DNA from: Bacillus weihaiensis
GTDB lineage: Bacteria; Bacillota; Bacilli; Bacillales; Bacillaceae
Assembly (NCBI RefSeq): GCF_001889165.1
Contig: NZ_CP016020.1
Coordinates: 434,001 to 498,000, forward strand
Direction: 5' to 3'
DNA: 64,000 bases
The notes below the pieces were generated by a model. It had not been told where the DNA came from, did no database searches, and saw only the letters and a list, made by a program, of their open reading frames with translations. Shown here piece after piece: positions 3,601 to 64,000 of this stretch. The first letter of the stretch is position 1; each line of letters starts with the position of its first letter. A program made the position numbers and the translations under genes.

Positions 3601-5055
3601 ATGGAGATTACGACTATTTTGCTTGGTTTTATTATCGTATTAAACATTGTGTTTGCCGTCATCGTAATCTTCCGAGAGCGAAGAGATGCAACGGCCTCTT
3701 GGGCTTGGCTTCTTGTCCTTTTTTTCATCCCTGTATTAGGCTTTGTTTTGTATATGCTGTTAGGACAAAATTTAAGTCGATATCATATGTTTCAATGGGA
3801 GGATCGAAAAAAGCTCGGGATTGAAAAAATCATTGCTACTCAATTAGAAAGCATAAGAAATAATACGTTTGAATTTCGAGATGAAGTAGCAAAAAACAAT
3901 AAGCAATTAATAAGTATGCATATTCTAAATAACGATGCGATTTTAACAGACGATAATATGATTGAGATCTTCACGGACGGTCATCAAAAATTTAATCAAC
4001 TTTTAAAGGATATACAAGCTGCTGAGCATCATATACATCTTCAATATTATATTTTGAAAAAAGATCAGCTTGGCATAAGACTAATTGAGGAATTAGAAAA
4101 GAAGGCAAAGCAAGGTGTAAGGGTTAAAGTTTTGTACGATGACTTGGGTTCGAGGGGCCTTAGACCATCCTTCTTTAAGAGATTGCGTCAGGCTGATGGT
4201 GAGGTTGAAGTGTTTTTCCCGTCACGGCTACGTTGGATTAACTTACGAATGAATTACCGGAATCATCGCAAGCTTGTCATTATTGATGGAAAAGTGGGGT
4301 ATGTAGGTGGGTTTAACGTTGGTGATGAGTATTTAGGCCTTGACCCTAAATTTGGGTATTGGAGAGACACCCATTTGCGTATCCATGGAAGAGCTGTTCA
4401 TGCAATCCAAACCAGATTTATTTTGGACTGGAATCAAGCAACGGAAAAACAAAAAATTGCTTTTTCAAGTCACTTTTTCCCTGAACCAGAGGAAAATTCG
4501 AAAGGATCTAGTTCCGTGCAAATTGTGACCAGTGGCCCTGATTCAGAATGGGAACAAATCAAAAATGGTTACATTAAAATGGTGTCAACTGCAAAAAAAT
4601 CCATTCGAATTCAAACACCTTATTTTATCCCTGATGCAAGTCTTTTAGATGCATTAAAAATTGCCTGCTTGTCAGGAGTTGACGTGGAGCTCATGATTCC
4701 AAACAAGCCAGACCATCCTTTTGTTTATTGGGCAACAATGTCATATGTTGGAGAGCTTTTAAACTCAGGAGCTCGTGTGTATATTTACGACAATGGCTTT
4801 ATTCATGCAAAAACTATTGTGGTGGATGAGGAATTAGCCTCTGTTGGAACCGCGAACATTGACATGCGTAGCTTTAAATTGAATTTTGAGGTCAATGCCT
4901 TCGTCTATGATGCTGAAATCGCGTTGGAGCTAGTAGAAGCATTTCAACACGACCAAAGCGTCTCACGCGAATTAACATTAGAAGCCTATGTAAATCGAAA
5001 AAAAATCATTCGGTTTAAAGAATCCGTTTCAAGATTATTATCTCCAATCTTATAG
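3601..5055 (+). CDS. cls: Cardiolipin synthase (PLD superfamily)
   Basis: Joins two phosphatidylglycerol molecules into cardiolipin and glycerol at the membrane. Two N-terminal hydrophobic segments (about residues 2-22 and 35-55) precede two phospholipase-D catalytic motifs: NYRNHRKLVIIDG with GGFN, and FIHAKTIVVD with GTANID. About 484 residues is the normal length. The ATG at 3601 is preferred because GAGGAAG sits seven bases upstream and the protein then begins MEITTILL as in Bacillus relatives; a GTG at 3586 is in frame but has no ribosome site. It is monocistronic, with manA following after about 100 bases. Confidence 0.94.
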   Translation: MEITTILLGFIIVLNIVFAVIVIFRERRDATASWAWLLVLFFIPVLGFVLYMLLGQNLSRYHMFQWEDRKKLGIEKIIATQLESIRNNTFEFRDEVAKNNKQLISMHILNNDAILTDDNMIEIFTDGHQKFNQLLKDIQAAEHHIHLQYYILKKDQLGIRLIEELEKKAKQGVRVKVLYDDLGSRGLRPSFFKRLRQADGEVEVFFPSRLRWINLRMNYRNHRKLVIIDGKVGYVGGFNVGDEYLGLDPKFGYWRDTHLRIHGRAVHAIQTRFILDWNQATEKQKIAFSSHFFPEPEENSKGSSSVQIVTSGPDSEWEQIKNGYIKMVSTAKKSIRIQTPYFIPDASLLDALKIACLSGVDVELMIPNKPDHPFVYWATMSYVGELLNSGARVYIYDNGFIHAKTIVVDEELASVGTANIDMRSFKLNFEVNAFVYDAEIALELVEAFQHDQSVSRELTLEAYVNRKKIIRFKESVSRLLSPIL

Positions 5056-5160
5056 GTAGGGAGGAGAGCTGAAATTATTTATTATTTGACAACTACTCGA
5101 TGTTTCGTTGACACTAACTAGTAGAATATACATAGAAATTTTTAAAAGGTGGTAGACCGA

Positions 5161-6108
5161 ATGGTAGAATTATTAAAGTTAAAGCCCATTTTTCAAGAAC
5201 GAATTTGGGGTGGTACTACATTGAGAGATTCCTTCGGATACGAAATTCCAAGTGAACAAACTGGAGAGTGCTGGGCTATTAGTGCACATCCGAATGGAAA
5301 TTGTACAGTTGAAAACGGTCCTTTTGCTGGAAAAGAATTAAGCTGGCTATGGGAAAATCAACGTGATTTATTTCAACAAATGGAAGGAGATCGTTTCCCT
5401 CTGTTAACAAAAATATTAGACGCGAAAGCAGATCTTAGCGTACAGGTCCACCCTAACGATGAATATGCAAAAGTAAACGAAAATGGTGAATTAGGGAAAA
5501 CTGAGTGCTGGTATATTATTGACTGTAAAGAGGATGCAGAGATGATTTTTGGTCATCACGCCCAAACGAAGGAACAGTTCGTACAAATGATTCATTCGGG
5601 TAGATGGGACGATCTCCTTAGACGAGTGAAAATAAAGCCAGGTGATTTTTTCTATGTTCCAAGTGGGACCCTCCATGCTCTTTGTGAAGGAACGCTTGTA
5701 TTAGAAACGCAGCAAAGCTCGGATACGACCTACCGTGTGTATGACTACGATCGAGTGGACGCAAATGGTCAAACCAGAGAATTACACCTAGATAAGGCAA
5801 TTGAAGTTACAACAGTCCCAGATCAAGTAAACCACTCTGAGCACCGAACGATTCAAGAAGGAACAGCCACGATCACCACATTCGCAGAAGAAGAATATTT
5901 CTCTGTTTACAAGTGGACCGTTCAAGATACATACACCTATAACCGTAAAGCCCCTTTCCTCCTTTGTAGTGTTATCAGTGGGCAGGGAGTCGTGAAAACA
6001 AACGGTGAAACGCTTAGTATCAAAAAAGGTGATCACTTCATCCTAACAGCTAATGCAGAGCAATTAACGATTGAAGGCACTATTGAGCTCATTGTGTCCC
6101 ATCCATAA
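5161..6108 (+). CDS. manA: Mannose-6-phosphate isomerase, class I
   Basis: Interconverts mannose-6-phosphate and fructose-6-phosphate using one zinc ion. The cupin zinc ligands are visible: the histidine in VQVHPNDEYA, the glutamate in KTECWYII, and the histidine in SGTLHALCEG. The starting motif LKPIFQERIWGGTTLRD is typical, and 315 residues matches the Bacillus enzymes. The ATG at 5161 follows AAAGGTGG (5145-5152) by eight bases; the in-frame GTG at 5149 overlaps that ribosome site and is rejected. The gene is monocistronic with its own terminator. No mannose PTS gene is nearby, so it may serve mannose use or supply GDP-mannose precursors. Confidence 0.95.
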   Translation: MVELLKLKPIFQERIWGGTTLRDSFGYEIPSEQTGECWAISAHPNGNCTVENGPFAGKELSWLWENQRDLFQQMEGDRFPLLTKILDAKADLSVQVHPNDEYAKVNENGELGKTECWYIIDCKEDAEMIFGHHAQTKEQFVQMIHSGRWDDLLRRVKIKPGDFFYVPSGTLHALCEGTLVLETQQSSDTTYRVYDYDRVDANGQTRELHLDKAIEVTTVPDQVNHSEHRTIQEGTATITTFAEEEYFSVYKWTVQDTYTYNRKAPFLLCSVISGQGVVKTNGETLSIKKGDHFILTANAEQLTIEGTIELIVSHP

Positions 6109-6120
6109 GTTATGTGAAAA

Positions 6121-6145
6121 AGCCCCTTTAGTTGGGGCTTTTTTT
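6121..6145 (+). terminator. Terminator after manA
   Basis: Stem AGCCCC (6121-6126) pairs with GGGGCT (6134-6139), followed by seven T. A preceding A-run extends the stem. The repeat element at 6177 begins just beyond it. Confidence 0.85.
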
Positions 6146-6176
6146 GATGGGAGAGGACTAGTTTTAGAACTTAAGG

Positions 6177-6392
6177 AGGGAGGTAAGTGGGGGGCAGGTG
6201 AGTGAGCGGGCAGGCAGGTAAGTAAGTGAGATTTTTGTCGAAATGAGTCTAATAGCGGAAAGAGGTGCAAGAATCGCGGAAAGGAGTGCAAGAATCGCGG
6301 AAAGGAGTGCGAGAATCGCGGAAAGAGGTGCAAGAATCACAGCTAGATGTTCAAAACTCGTGCAAAAGAGCAAAAATCTCAGATAGCTCCCA
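6177..6392. repeat. Composite intergenic element: GTGA-type tract plus 21-bp tandem array
   Basis: About 55 bases of period-4 G-rich sequence (GGAG, GTAA, GTGG, GTGA and GCAG units) are followed by a short spacer ending GTCTAAT (6247-6253). Then come units of exactly 21 bases starting at 6250, 6271, 6292, 6313 and 6334, with two decayed units to 6392. The well-kept units read GAATCGCGGAAAGGAGTGCA plus one base. The 3' flank ATAGCTCCCA recurs at the end of the 39.9-kb array. Short reading frames across it exist only because 21 is a multiple of three and the unit lacks stops. The 467-base manA-to-lipoprotein gap holds nothing else recognised. Confidence 0.85.
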
Positions 6393-38463: not shown

Positions 38464-39218
38464 TTACAAAACGAATTATTCCTTGCTTAGATGTTAAGGA
38501 AGGACGTGTTGTAAAGGGTATTCAATTTTTAGGCTTACGTGATGCAGGAGATCCGGTTGAATTAGCTAAGTTTTACGATGAGGAAGGTGCGGATGAACTA
38601 GTTTTCCTAGATATTTCTGCTTCTCACGAAGGTCGTAAAACGATGGTGGATGTATTGGAGCAGGTTGCAGCTCAGCTTGCCATTCCTTTTACTGTTGGTG
38701 GGGGAATTAATTCTCTTGAAGATATGAAAAAAATTCTTCGTGCTGGGGCTGATAAAGTGTCTCTTAACACAGCTGCAGTCGTTAATCCGGAGCTCATCTC
38801 TGAGGGAGCAGGCTTTTTCGGATCTCAATGTATCGTTGTAGCGATTGATGCGAAGTATGACACGGAGCTTGGTAGCTTTAGAGTGTATACACACGGTGGT
38901 CGTAAAGCAACGGAGTGGGAAGTAGTAGCGTGGGCGAAAGAAGCGGTAAAACGTGGTGCAGGTGAAATCCTTCTTACAAGCATGGATAGTGATGGAGAGA
39001 AAAATGGCTTTAATCTAGCCTTAAATAAGCTAGTGAATGAAGCTGTAAGTGTACCTGTTATTGCCTCAGGTGGCGCTGGAAATGCTGAGCACTTTCTACA
39101 TGCTTTTAAGGAAGGAAAAGCAGACGCAGCATTAGCGGCATCAATTTTCCATTATAAAGAAACGTCTGTAAAGGAAGTAAAAGCGTATTTGAATGAGCAG
39201 GGAGTGAATGTTCGATGA
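38460..39218 (+). CDS. hisF: Imidazole glycerol phosphate synthase, cyclase subunit
   Basis: Uses ammonia from HisH to close the imidazole ring and release AICAR. The TIM barrel shows [27 protein letters not shown] with the first catalytic aspartate, VGGGINS, and [17 protein letters not shown] with the second. The 252-residue length is normal. It starts in the hisA stop and overlaps hisIE. Confidence 0.97.
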
Positions 39219-39838
39219 TCGAAAATGTGAAATTTGACGAAAAAGGCTTAGTACCTGCGATTGTTCAAGATGCAGTAAGCAAGGAAGTGTTAACACTAGC
39301 CTACATGAATGAAGAATCTTTGAAAAAGTCGCTTGAAACGAAGGAAACATGGTTTTATAGCCGTTCAAGACAAGAGCTTTGGCATAAAGGTGGAACATCT
39401 GGTAACATCCAAAAGATCGTGGAAATGAGATATGACTGTGATCAGGATGCGATTCTCGTCCTAGTTCAGCCAGCAGGACCGGCTTGTCACACTGGAGCTT
39501 ACACATGTTTTAATGAAACAATAGATAAGCAAGAGGTCGTTCCCGCACAAAATCGCTTTGAAATTTTAAACACATTAGAGGCGTTGATTGCTGAACGTGA
39601 AAGTGAAAAACCAGAAGGATCTTATACAACCTATCTTTTCAATGAAGGGGTAGACAAAATTCTGAAAAAAGTAGGCGAGGAAGCATCTGAGGTAATAATC
39701 GCGTCTAAAAATCGTGATGCCGAGGAATTAAAATGGGAAGTAGCTGACTTACTTTTCCACTTAATGGTTCTTTTACGCGAGCAAAAGCTCCCATTAGATG
39801 AAGTGTTAAAGGTGTTAAAAGAAAGACATACAAAATAA
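39215..39838 (+). CDS. hisIE: Bifunctional phosphoribosyl-AMP cyclohydrolase / phosphoribosyl-ATP pyrophosphatase
   Basis: A fused enzyme for steps two and three of histidine synthesis. The N-terminal HisI half (residues 1-105) has [16 protein letters not shown] and the zinc ligands [22 protein letters not shown]. The C-terminal HisE half has [37 protein letters not shown] and the MazG-like LLFHLMVLL. It is last in the his operon and overlaps hisF by four bases. The HisE end is followed directly by the terminator and the largest repeat array. Confidence 0.96.
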
Positions 39839-39839
39839 G

Positions 39840-39878
39840 AGCTGAATCTAGGCGAAAGTCTAGCTTCAGCTTTTTTTT
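39840..39878 (+). terminator. Terminator of the his operon
   Basis: A 12-base stem with one mismatch (39840-39851 with 39860-39871) leads into eight T. Confidence 0.9.
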
Positions 39879-39932
39879 GAGCTGGGTGGAGGGTAGAGGA
39901 ATTAAGTGTGAGGTAAGGAGAGAGGGGAGCCG

Positions 39933-40267
39933 GAATCGCGGAAAGGAGTGCCGGAATCGCGGAAAGGAGTGCAGGAATCGCGGAAAGGAGTGCCGGAATC
40001 GCGGAAAGAGGAGCCTGAATCGCGGAAAGAGGAGCCGGAATCGCGGAAAGGAGTGCCAGAATCGCGGAAAGAGGAGCCGGAATCGCGGAAAGGAGTGCCG
40101 GAATCGCGGAAAGGAGTGCCGGGATCGCGGAAAGAGGAGCCGGAATCGCGGAAAGGAGTGCCGGAATCGCGGAAAGGAGTGCCGGGATCGCGGAAAGAGG
40201 AGCCGGAATCGCGGAAAGGAGTGCCAGGATCGCGGAAAGGTTCCCCAAGAATCACGAATAGCTCCCA
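39933..40267. repeat. Array of fifteen 21-bp tandem repeats plus decayed end unit
   Basis: Fifteen head-to-tail units of exactly 21 bases start at 39933 and repeat without a length change to 40247. Two unit types alternate: GAATCGCGGAAAGGAGTGCC plus one base, and GAATCGCGGAAAGAGGAGCC plus one base. Some begin GGATCG. A sixteenth unit is degenerate and ends GAATAGCTCCCA, sharing ATAGCTCCCA with the end of the 6.2-kb element. Purine-rich bases lie between the his terminator and the first unit. There are no spacers, so this is not a CRISPR. All frames stay open through it because the unit has no stop and is a multiple of three. The remaining 180 bases to the next gene show only a short hairpin (40394-40410). 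Confidence 0.95.
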
Positions 40268-40449
40268 ATTTTTTCATTAGCGTAACGTCTAGATGAGAAA
40301 TTGAGTATAAAAATAGTAGAAAGTAGGCTAGAAAAAGGGAATGTTACCTATTATCCTTCATTTTAAATAAAATAGAAGGTGTAAGCTCAACTAATGGAGA
40401 AAATCTCCATAGGTCAAGCCTCTTCCATAGCTTCTATAGCTTTTACATA

Positions 40450-49683: not shown

Positions 49684-49941
49684 ATGGTTGAAAAACAAGT
49701 GGAAGTTCATCTGAAATCAGGTTTACAAGCACGTCCAGCTGCACTATTTGTTCAAGAAGCAAATCGCTTTTCTTCAGACGTTTTCTTAGAAAAAGACGGA
49801 AAGAAAGTGAACGCTAAAAGTATTATGGGACTAATGAGCCTAGCCATCAGCAACGGTTCGACGATCACGCTTATTGCAGAAGGAAATGACGAGCAAGAAG
49901 CTGTAGAAACATTATCGGCATATGTTCAACAAGAAGGGTAA
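49684..49941 (+). CDS. crh: Catabolite repression HPr-like protein Crh
   Basis: An 85-residue HPr paralogue. Position 15 is glutamine (GLQARPAA) where HPr has the PTS phosphoryl-accepting histidine, so it cannot carry PTS phosphate. Ser46 in NAKSIMGLMSL is kept and is the HprK/P target; P-Ser-Crh is a CcpA co-repressor. In B. subtilis Crh also links to GlmR and methylglyoxal synthase. It stands 244 bases after whiA and has a good ribosome site (AAGAGGAGAG). Confidence 0.96.
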   Translation: MVEKQVEVHLKSGLQARPAALFVQEANRFSSDVFLEKDGKKVNAKSIMGLMSLAISNGSTITLIAEGNDEQEAVETLSAYVQQEG

Positions 49942-49986: not shown

Positions 49987-50013
49987 TTGTGAGGTGTTTT
50001 CTGGTGCCAGGCA

Positions 50014-50122
50014 TTTTTATTTTCGAAAATGAGCTACTTATTTTCGAAAAGTAGGCATTTATTTTCGCTTTTTACGATTTATTAACGAGTTTGGTGATTT
50101 TATTTTCGGATTTCGTCCTTTT
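50014..50122. repeat. AT-rich tandem array with about 21-bp period
   Basis: The heptamer ATTTTCG begins at 50019, 50040, 50061 and 50102, with a variant ATTAACG at 50081; spacings are 21, 21, 20 and 21. Between the anchors the sequence varies more than in the GC-rich arrays. The motif TGCCAGGCA just before it is part of a GTGCCAGGCAC-type word that I recall as common in Bacillus intergenic DNA. Like the other arrays it begins shortly after a plus-strand terminator, here that of crh. Confidence 0.65.
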
Positions 50123-50144
50123 ATTTATTTTTCTACTTAATTCG

Positions 50145-50199: not shown

Positions 50200-50796
50200 T
50201 TATTTATTTCCAAGAATATTGCGGTCTAATACTTTGTCGATTAAACCATATTCTAATGCACGCTCAGCTGTCATGAAGTTATCACGATCTGTATCCTTTT
50301 CGATCACTTCGATCGGTTGACCAGTACGTTCAGATAAGATTTTGTTTAATTTTTCACGAAGGAAAAGAATGCGTTTTGCCGCAATTTCAATTTCCGTTGC
50401 TTGACCTTGTGCTCCACCTAATGGTTGGTGAATCATGACTTCACTGTTAGGAAGTGCGTAACGCTTACCTTTATCTCCAGCTGCTAAAAGGAAAGCACCC
50501 ATAGATGCCGCCATACCAATACAAATTGTTGATACGCTAGGCTTAATGAACTGCATCGTATCGTAAATAGCCATACCTGCTGTAATTGATCCACCAGGGC
50601 TGTTAATATAAATGGAGATGTCCTTCTCTGGATCTTCTGCTTCTAAGAATAAAAGCTGAGACACGATAGAGTTTGCTACATTATCATCAATTGCACTACC
50701 AAGCATGATGATACGGTCTTTTAAAAGACGAGAATAAATGTCATACGCGCGCTCACCACGATTTGTTTGTTCAATAACTGTAGGAATTAAATTCAT
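50200..50796 (-). CDS. clpP: ATP-dependent Clp protease proteolytic subunit
   Basis: The barrel-forming serine protease that works with ClpC, ClpX or ClpE. The catalytic triad is visible at Ser98 (GMAASMG), His123 (VMIHQPLGG) and Asp172. The 198-residue length is normal. The start follows GGAGGAAC on the minus strand. A CtsR operator overlaps its promoter, as in the heat-shock regulon of Bacillus. It is convergent with crh, the same layout as in B. subtilis. Confidence 0.98.
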
Positions 50797-62447: not shown

Positions 62448-63758
<1,311 letters not shown>

Positions 63759-63777
63759 TTTGAGTTAGAATTTGAGG

Positions 63778-63807
63778 GAACTGCCGCGGGTGCGGCAGTT
63801 CTTTTTT
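63778..63807 (+). terminator. Terminator after eno
   Basis: A perfect ten-bp GC-rich stem (GAACTGCCGC at 63778-63787 with 63792-63801) with a four-base loop and six T. Confidence 0.93.
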
Positions 63808-63811
63808 GTAT

Positions 63812-64000
63812 GGGGAGATTTGGATGGGAGTGAGTGGGTGGGTTGGTTGAGTAGGCGGGTGAGTGAGTGGGTGAGTGGGTGGGTGGGCGAATTTTGCTGG
63901 AAATTGGCGGGATTTGTCTAATCGCGGATAGGAGAGCTAAAATCGCGGATAGAGGGCTGAAAATCGCGGATAGAGGGCTGAAAATCGCGGATAGAGGGCT
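63812..64000. repeat. Composite element: GTGA/GTGG tract plus 21-bp array (cut by window end)
   Basis: About 80 bases of period-4 G-rich sequence (GTGA, GTGG, GTTG, GGCG units) are followed by a spacer ending GTCTAAT (63916-63922), then 21-base units anchored on AATCGCGG at 63920, 63941, 63962 and 63983. The unit reads AATCGCGGATAGAGGGCTGA plus one base. The array continues beyond the window. The order of modules is the same as at 6177-6392, again right after a terminator. Confidence 0.9.

What the first reader, a model, noticed from the sequence alone, without database searches (positions are those of the whole stretch)
39933..40267. Family of strictly 21-bp-phased intergenic arrays, each placed just after an intrinsic terminator
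Four arrays lie in 64 kb: 6250-6392 (after manA), 39933-40267 (after hisIE), 50014-50122 (after crh) and 63919 to beyond 64000 (after eno). Three share the core AATCGCGG. The largest has 15 units with no length change, so the period is under selection or very recent. Twenty-one bases is two helical turns, so a protein could bind one DNA face at every unit. Many units also contain AAAGGAG, similar to a ribosome site, on the strand of the upstream gene. Placement after terminators suggests a role in read-through RNA, 3'-end processing, nucleoid binding or relief of supercoiling between operons. I know no described function.
Basis: partly seen in the sequence, partly recalled or inferred. Interest (0 to 1): 0.85.

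Follow-up and report, generated by a model that had tools for sequence, protein, structure and literature searches.

The report
Helix-phased repeat arrays after bacterial genes
Many Bacillus-like bacteria carry, just after some of their genes, a short DNA motif repeated every two turns of the double helix, often behind a fixed start sequence; lineages spell the motif differently, and the protein that presumably reads it is unknown.

Summary
The arrays are real and go far beyond the window. About 0.99 Mb of the own genome holds 45 array pieces at 38 loci, in two families, AATCGCGGATAG and CGAAAATAAA. Both fit CG-NNN-ATAR plus a free spacer, every 20 or 21 bp; among lags 12-69 only 21, 42 and 63 stand out. 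Twelve relatives picked because earlier calls had shown arrays give 672 matches against 1 in the control. Others occur in part of the order and in one family of another order. NNN differs by lineage. In many arrays of this genus TGTC(G/T) lies about 5, 15, 25 or 35 bp before the first unit. Between sister species the fixed letters hardly change (404/409) while spacers do (586/683) and unit number varies. This favours a DNA-level array read by an unknown protein on one helix face, over a neutral satellite, an RNA element or a RAYT/REP system (tested, rejected). Function is inferred.

The parts
6120..6146 (+). intrinsic terminator (read by eye) of the upstream gene (mannose-6-phosphate isomerase, 5149-6108)
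   Evidence: sequence; Pfam
6230..6249 (+). leader GATTTTTGTCGAAATGAGTC in front of unit 1
6250..6375 (+). family 1 array, 6 unit slots of 21 bp, last two decayed
39841..39878 (+). terminator after hisIE (39215-39838): hairpin plus T run, read by eye
   Evidence: sequence; gene by Pfam; the scans did not report it (imperfect stem)
39933..40247 (+). family 1 array, 15 units of 21 bp, core AATCGCGGAAAG; the given finding
40248..40270 (+). decayed last unit (AGAATCACGAATAG...)
50009..50126 (-). family 2 array, core CGAAAATAAA on the - strand, 3 unit slots with the motif plus decayed ones, between crh (49684-49941 +) and the ORF 50200-50796 (-)
   Evidence: gene name crh by recall from the ORF, no family search run
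63777..63808 (+). terminator (read by eye) after eno (62466-63758)
   Evidence: Pfam
63811..63889 (+). G-rich GTGGGTGAGTGG stretch between terminator and leader
63890..63918 (+). leader AATTTTGCTGGAAATTGGCGGGATTTGTC; related sequence stands at the same place after eno in relatives
63919..64000 (+). family 1 array, 4 units in the window, continuing to genome position about 498086

Best explanation
The arrays are an old family of DNA-level elements at gene ends. An unknown sequence-specific protein binds the 14-15 bp site AAAT-CG-NNN-ATAAA. Sites recur every 20-21 bp (two helical turns), so all copies face one side of the helix and can be bound side by side. In this genus the TTTGTC leader, set at half-integer turns (5+10n bp) from the first unit, marks the start and may nucleate the filament or loop. 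Between neighbouring operons such a complex could act as a topological or nucleoid anchor, as BIMEs do in E. coli. Unit number changes by slippage or unequal exchange; the NNN letters drift by lineage with the reader protein. Shown: anatomy, spacing, phasing, conservation, place, lineage-specific cores. Inferred: the protein, nucleation, drift with the protein, and the anchor or supercoiling role.
For: Spacing: 125 of 159 neighbouring core pairs within 75 bp are 21 bp apart in own DNA; 20 or 21 is the commonest spacing in six other sets. A search open to spacings 12-42 listed only 20, 21 and 39-42 (rows were shown for G052, G053, G054 and part of G056). Leader distances cluster at 5, 15, 25 and 35 (54 leader sites before 58 arrays of relatives), with phase coherence 0.97 at 10 bp against 0.09 at 7 and 0.27 at 13. 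The A/T profile of the unit has its largest harmonic at 10-10.5 bp in 8 of 8 sets. Fixed core letters are 404/409 identical over 12 orthologous pairs, spacers 586/683, flanks 4663/5165 (Fisher 1e-15 against spacers, positions and pairs not independent). At the eno site, chosen by the gene, 8 pairs give 211/216, 344/379 and 2124/2356 (Fisher 0.001 core against spacer, spacer equal to flank). One orthologous site switched core: CGCGGATAA in G068, CGAAGATAA in G058 and G054.
Against: No binding protein was found, and no occupancy or expression data exist here. Three of 19 readable relatives have nothing recognisable after eno (G061, G070, G071), so the element is dispensable there. My leader pattern is missing at 15 of 44 own and 33 of 44 other arrays, and other lineages have other leaders. 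Family 1 is not more curved than other intergenic DNA in the model used. Homogenisation inside arrays could also keep cores alike. The ortholog pairs were found because both members showed arrays, which favours conserved cores; reduces this but covers one site, and there NNN is as conserved as the core (106/108).
Confidence: 0.5

Rival explanations
1. Neutral or selfish minisatellite: slippage and unequal crossing-over spread and homogenise units; gene 3' ends are simply where insertions do least harm.
For: Unit number differs between sister species (17 and 6, 6 and 3, 8 and 6). Array edges are decayed. Higher-order duplicates recur (63-bp period in the main array; G079). Terminator rate is no higher than at other gene 3' ends.
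Against: Family 2 units share core and spacing but hardly any spacer sequence, so they are not recent copies. Homogenisation does not explain why mainly CG and ATAR are kept, nor the leader phased at 10 bp, nor the site kept after eno in 12 of 19 relatives.
Confidence: 0.22
2. Sequence-directed bending site for gyrase or a general nucleoid protein: the 10-10.5 bp A/T pattern alone is read, with no specific partner.
For: A/T harmonic at 10-10.5 bp in 8 of 8 sets; the spacer's A/T pattern exceeds 500 shuffles in own family 2 and G058 (0 of 500 reach) and weakly in the order set (5 of 500); family 1 was not put to that shuffle. Modelled bend 58 degrees for family 2, 69 for G058, 55 for loci, against 34 for own intergenic DNA (no such baseline was made for the relatives). 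E. coli gyrase has a motif with two periodic flanks and its cleavage sites are overrepresented in BIME-2 repeats (PMC6379681, passages).
Against: Family 1, this genome's GC-rich family, is not bent more than intergenic DNA (33 against 34 degrees). A shape signal does not need a fixed CG or a lineage-wide NNN. In E. coli, attraction of gyrase downstream of transcription units is reported not to be hard-wired in the sequence (PMC6379681, passage).
Confidence: 0.15
3. RNA element: read-through transcripts carry repeated sites for an RNA-binding protein or for 3'-end processing.
For: Orientation usually matches the upstream gene (26 of 35 loci have a gene 3' end on the leader side). Same-strand terminators upstream. 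One of 6 folded pieces, a family 2 array, is more stable than its shuffles (z -3.35).
Against: At 4 of 4 loci whose two neighbours both run against replication the array follows replication, not the genes. Folding is unremarkable in 5 of 6 pieces. The only Rfam match in the window is a tRNA. Helical phasing with half-turn leader offsets has no meaning in RNA.
Confidence: 0.08
4. RAYT/REP-type system: arrays are targets of the Y1 transposase-like protein with a C-terminal HTH (259 aa, own genome C1:253962).
For: The core reverse complement TTAT-NNN-CG resembles a DnaA box (recalled), and some such proteins have a DnaA-like C-terminal domain (PMC6006769, passages). In G068 two HTH types go with two cores. 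By the 21-bp pattern, arrays showed in 4 of 9 genus genomes with a long RAYT and 0 of 12 without.
Against: With 20-bp units allowed, G052, G053, G057, G059, G063 and G066 have arrays (15-103 pairs) but no Y1 hit with an open frame over 220 aa. G423 and G162 have array matches and no Y1 hit at all (G423's reversed control rings too). None of 19 Y1 genes read has an array core series within about 0.9-1.8 kb; several have GGGACAGG-type palindromes instead. The own HTH matched HTH_Tnp_1, and no DnaA model was listed.
Confidence: 0.03

Closest known systems
STAR elements of staphylococci (PMC3532100, passages read)
   Same: Intergenic direct repeats with spacers, a start signature, copy-number change inside a locus, different loci in each species, function unknown.
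   Different: 14-bp GC-rich motif with spacers of 40-44 bp, start signature about 70-190 bp away; here a 9-bp frame every 20-21 bp and a leader phased at 10 bp. The STAR motif is not in the window beyond chance.
BIME/REP elements of E. coli (PMC6379681 passages; otherwise recalled)
   Same: Repeats between genes in many copies; bound or cut by gyrase, proposed topological role.
   Different: REPs are palindromes linked to RAYTs; here direct repeats, no RAYT link.
Plasmid iterons (recalled)
   Same: Direct repeats near 20-22 bp, conserved core plus free spacer, one protein per two turns.
   Different: Here chromosomal, at dozens of loci, at ends of housekeeping genes.
TAACTGA intergenic direct repeats of Beggiatoaceae (PMC4679880, passages read)
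   Same: Genome-wide short direct repeats between genes, reader unknown.
   Different: 7-bp direct repeats, mostly just before start codons.
False-CRISPR tandem repeats (PMC5294841, passages read)
   Same: Repeat-spacer look without cas genes; many left unknown in that survey.
   Different: That survey defines no family by frame or spacing in the passages I saw.

Membership tests
STAR elements | motif TNTGTTGNGGCCCN | tested here: not met
   (core TGTTGNGGCCC): 1 match with 1 mismatch in the window, shuffles mean 1.38, not in an array
STAR elements | spacers of at least 40 bp | tested here: not met
   core-to-core spacing 20-21 bp
STAR elements | start signature GTGGGACAGAAATGAT before the repeats | tested here: inconclusive
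   a leader exists at many arrays but with another sequence and distance; the STAR signature itself was not searched for
REP/RAYT system | RAYT gene in genomes that carry the repeats | tested here: not met
   six genus genomes with arrays but no long RAYT; two order genomes with no Y1 hit
REP/RAYT system | repeats flank the RAYT gene | tested here: not met
   no array core series beside 19 Y1 genes read
REP/RAYT system | palindromic unit | tested here: inconclusive
   units are direct repeats and the consensus is not palindromic by eye; the inverted-repeat call failed
Spo0A boxes | TTTGTCRAA (recalled) | tested here: inconclusive
   many leaders contain TTTGTCG, but the second leader box TTGTCTAAT and the units do not fit
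CRISPR | long identical repeats with unique spacers and cas genes | not tested
   cas genes not searched; a 9-bp core with spacers of about 12 bp makes it implausible
Iterons | bound by a replication initiator | not testable with these tools
   no binding data

The most novel reading that the evidence does not exclude
A widespread but undescribed chromosome-organising system of Bacilli: a fast-evolving DNA-binding protein reads CG-NNN-ATAA sites set at two-turn intervals behind a half-turn-phased leader at operon ends, and the three NNN letters form a lineage-specific code that protein and arrays change together.
Probability: 0.3. Interest if true: 0.9.

Novelty: new variant of a known kind. 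Interest (0 to 1): 0.72.

Why it matters
Intergenic repeats such as STAR elements were described as without known function (PMC3532100, passages). Here spacing, leader phase, conserved letters and free letters are separable, so a binding model makes sharp predictions: which bases matter, that 5-bp insertions abolish binding, and that swapping NNN swaps partner species. If true, it shows a chromosome-wide protein-DNA code that changes quickly between related bacteria.

Tried and rejected
RAYT/REP link: proposed from the DnaA-box-like core and written down as a presence/absence prediction before the test. By the 21-bp pattern it half held: 4 of 9 genus genomes with a long RAYT were positive and 0 of 12 without. 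One search, which allowed 20 bp, then found arrays in six relatives without a long RAYT. Rejected.

Species-specific core: seemed to show arrays in this genome only. That was an effect of the exact core; searches corrected it. Likewise, genus absences came partly from demanding 21 bp.

Phage or plasmid origin: 3 viral-contig scans gave 0, 2 and 2 stretches; by eye the four are not this kind of array. The main array against plasmids gave no match; phages were not searched with it. The genome's own 16.4-kb contig has no core pair at 20, 21 or 42 bp.

Intrinsic curvature as the common property: fails for family 1 (wedge values recalled, not from a call).

Coding reading: 21 bp is 7 codons and open frames cross the array, but spacers are free and the arrays lie between called genes. 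Four order loci (L131, L132, L133, L154) were taken as repeats inside genes and dropped before later counts; one of them (L131) was read as an ORF, the other three were judged by eye.

Replication polarity: 31 of 38 loci lie with the leading strand, but 80% of called genes do too. The 4 of 4 conflict loci point to replication, but 3 of 19 co-directional loci run against both genes and replication.

Rows dropped: 4 motif groups scoring under 10 and one lag-21 group without the motif.

Literature: ten searches listed no description of these arrays as far as titles and abstract starts show. Most subscription papers are not in that library.

Full report
WHAT IS THERE. The window holds four arrays with a 21-bp period. 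Three carry AATCGCGG; ATCGCGGANAG occurs 23 times with at most one mismatch against a mean of 1.70 in shuffles. The array of the finding has 15 units at 39933-40247, between hisIE and a convergent ORF. The array after eno runs past the window end. The array at 50009-50126 belongs to a second family with core CGAAAATAAA read on the - strand.

GENOME-WIDE. In the own genome (4.36 Mb, unnamed) family 1 core pairs number 165 against 0 for the reversed pattern, and family 2 core pairs 61, up to one mismatch allowed, against 0. The list stops at 100 rows, so I fetched stretches: 27 chosen for known arrays (13, 14) and 26 not chosen for arrays (20, roughly every 90 kb from 0.9 to 2.7 Mb; 6). In 993 kb (window included) a scan that assumes no motif gave 46 segments at lag 21, 36 at 42 and 30 at 63, and 5-7 at every other lag from 12 to 69; five of them, present at all lags, are runs of N. 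The motif-based pass kept 45 array pieces (26 of family 1, 19 of family 2) at 38 loci; the eno array counts as two pieces because it crosses the window edge. The 26 unchosen stretches (520 kb) held one array, at 3.70 Mb. No match of either family's pattern was listed between 0.81 and 2.57 Mb, so the arrays avoid much of the region around the terminus, which lies near 2.1 Mb by GC skew.

THE UNIT. Both families fit CG-NNN-ATAR, flanked by A/T-rich edges, with six or so free spacer letters. In that call the units were picked by CG-NNN-ATAR, so the full information at those letters is by construction; the A/T edges and the free spacer (0-0.5 bit per position in family 2, G058 and the order set) are not. 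Family 2 keeps core and spacing without recent copying of spacers.

RELATIVES. With the exact core nothing similar appears in 79 other genomes of the family, and the scan of one genome per species for 84,980 species gave 14 stretches with one or two matches each, in unrelated groups; I took them as chance and did not read them. Relaxing the core changes this. TCGNRRATAR three times at 21 bp: 6 of 80 family genomes, own included, control 0. CGNNNATAR three times at 21 bp: 6 of 53 chosen genomes, control in 7. CGNNNATAR four times at 21 bp: 34 of 397 genomes of the order, but the reversed control also rings in 13 by my count of the table; one locus each was read for 30 of the 34, four are taken to be repeats inside genes, and some may be ordinary tandem repeats, so the true count is lower. 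AATCGNNNATAR pairs with any spacing from 12 to 42: 12 of 12 genus genomes, 15 to 126 matches each, 672 in all, control 1; these 12 of the 20 relatives were picked because or earlier searches had shown arrays there, and the other 8 were not given to that call. At class level, with 19-23 bp allowed and T before CG: 11 of 398, control in 1; four are of the own order (own genome included), seven are of one family (f49) in another order, of which 38 members were in the sample by my count. That pattern misses order genomes found, so 11 is a lower bound. NNN is mostly uniform within a genome and differs between genomes: CGG and AAA here, AAG in G054/G058/G068, CTG/CCG in G053, CCG in G436, TAA in G432, CAA in G517. 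It is not absolute: G054, G058, G079 and the g194 genomes mix variants.

AFTER ENO. For eno I read the downstream DNA at 20 of 23 genomes (G055, G074 and G079 were not parsed). Of 19 relatives in the genus, 12 have an array with leader by eye, one (G054) has the leader and one unit, G065 has another 21-bp array (core AAGTTGCAAGAT) with TTTGTC before it, G067 a doubtful one, G060 a 52-bp repeat, and G061, G070 and G071 nothing recognisable. The site is thus often kept while the core changes.

PHASING. Neighbouring cores lie 21 (125), 20 (4) or 19 (1) bp apart in own DNA, out of 159 pairs within 75 bp (the next commonest is 42, with 10); other sets are similar, with 20 dominant in the 30 loci (26 of 46) and 19 frequent in G079 (7 of 41). 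The leader element TGTC(G/T), sought within about 60 bp, lies at 15 (10 times), 24-26 (14), 36 (5) and four other distances once each before the first core in own DNA (33 sites, 45 arrays), and at 5 (14), 15 (17), 25 (9), 35 (7) and a few others in relatives (54 sites, 58 arrays). Phase coherence is highest at 10-10.25 bp in relatives (0.97) and 10.5 bp in own DNA (0.88) among nine periods tried. So leader and units sit about half a turn apart. Leader-like sequence is present at 29 of 44 own arrays and 11 of 44 arrays of other genomes, against 5% of random 80-mers; G162 and G191 have a different, palindrome-like leader.

SELECTION. Orthologous arrays of G054, G058 and G068 (12 pairs) differ in unit number, yet fixed core letters agree at 404 of 409 aligned positions, NNN at 184 of 208, spacers at 586 of 683 and flanks at 4663 of 5165. 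The pairs were found through arrays in both species, which biases towards conserved cores. At eno, chosen by the gene, the numbers are 211/216, 106/108, 344/379 and 2124/2356 over 8 overlapping pairs; core against spacer p 0.001, spacer against flank p 0.78. There NNN is as conserved as the core. At one orthologous site G068 has CGCGGATAA units and its sisters CGAAGATAA.

PLACE. The leader side faces a gene 3' end at 26 of 35 loci with two called neighbours (gene calls are my own, by codon score). Terminator-like hairpins lie upstream on the same strand for 12 of 43 own arrays and 34 of 92 others, downstream same-strand for 2 and 1; opposite-strand ones upstream 1 and 16, downstream 3 and 14; shuffled upstream letters 0 and 1. 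The rate is that of other gene ends (14 of 35 against 148 of 390, windows of 220 and 180 bp). Arrays lie with the leading strand at 31 of 38 loci; at 4 of 4 loci where both neighbours oppose replication the array follows replication, while 3 of 19 co-directional loci oppose both. In three relatives flank GC skew agrees at 26 of 34, but genes share this bias.

MECHANISM. The combination of free spacer, fixed short core, two-turn spacing and half-turn leader fits a protein bound repeatedly to one face of DNA, as at iterons. It does not fit RNA or coding. RAYT proteins were tested and excluded. Curvature alone is excluded as the common feature because family 1 lacks it. A topological or nucleoid role at operon ends is my inference, by analogy with BIMEs and gyrase (PMC6379681, passages); [quoted passage not shown] coli.

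KNOWN OR NEW. STAR elements are the nearest described kind I found (PMC3532100, passages), and their motif and spacing are not met. The ten searches of the paper library named in Tried and rejected list no description of the present arrays. I file it as a new variant of intergenic direct-repeat arrays, with a fair chance that it is a new kind of chromosome-organising system.

Noticed in passing
L188:1430-2209 and L189:1459-1992 (own genome C1:253962 and C1:223991): Two Y1_Tnp (RAYT-like) proteins, 259 aa with a C-terminal HTH and 177 aa without. The short one is flanked by GGTGCCAGTCCCC-type palindromes, a separate REP-like family; similar pieces stand beside some arrays (for example window 50003-50014).
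   Followed up: partly
L131, L132, L133 (genomes G136, G273, G379): A 21-bp CGTAAATAA repeat in three genomes of one family; in L131 it lies in frame in a 458-aa ORF and encodes NSVNN-like heptads. It may be an array captured by a gene or a coincidence.
   Followed up: partly
L346, L357 (G760) and rows of G564, G729, G753, G776 (genus g194 of family f49): Some arrays join two blocks with different NNN (ACG with CTG/CCG) at an 18-19 bp junction.
   Followed up: no
L339 (G060, after eno): A long 52-bp tandem repeat (about five helical turns) stands where relatives have the 20-21 bp array.
   Followed up: no
window 6160-6229, 39885-39930, 63811-63889: G-rich GTGGGTGAG stretches between terminator and array; they could form G-quadruplexes or R-loops.
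   Followed up: no
L342, L343, L353, L354 (G162, G191): Arrays with core CGCCAATAA preceded by an inverted repeat like ACTGGAAA...TTTCCAGT at 4 of 4 arrays read: a different, lineage-specific leader.
   Followed up: no
L335 (viral contig IMGVR_UViG_3300020161_003993): A long 10-bp tandem repeat (ATAATCGCNA-like) in a viral contig, one helical turn per unit.
   Followed up: no
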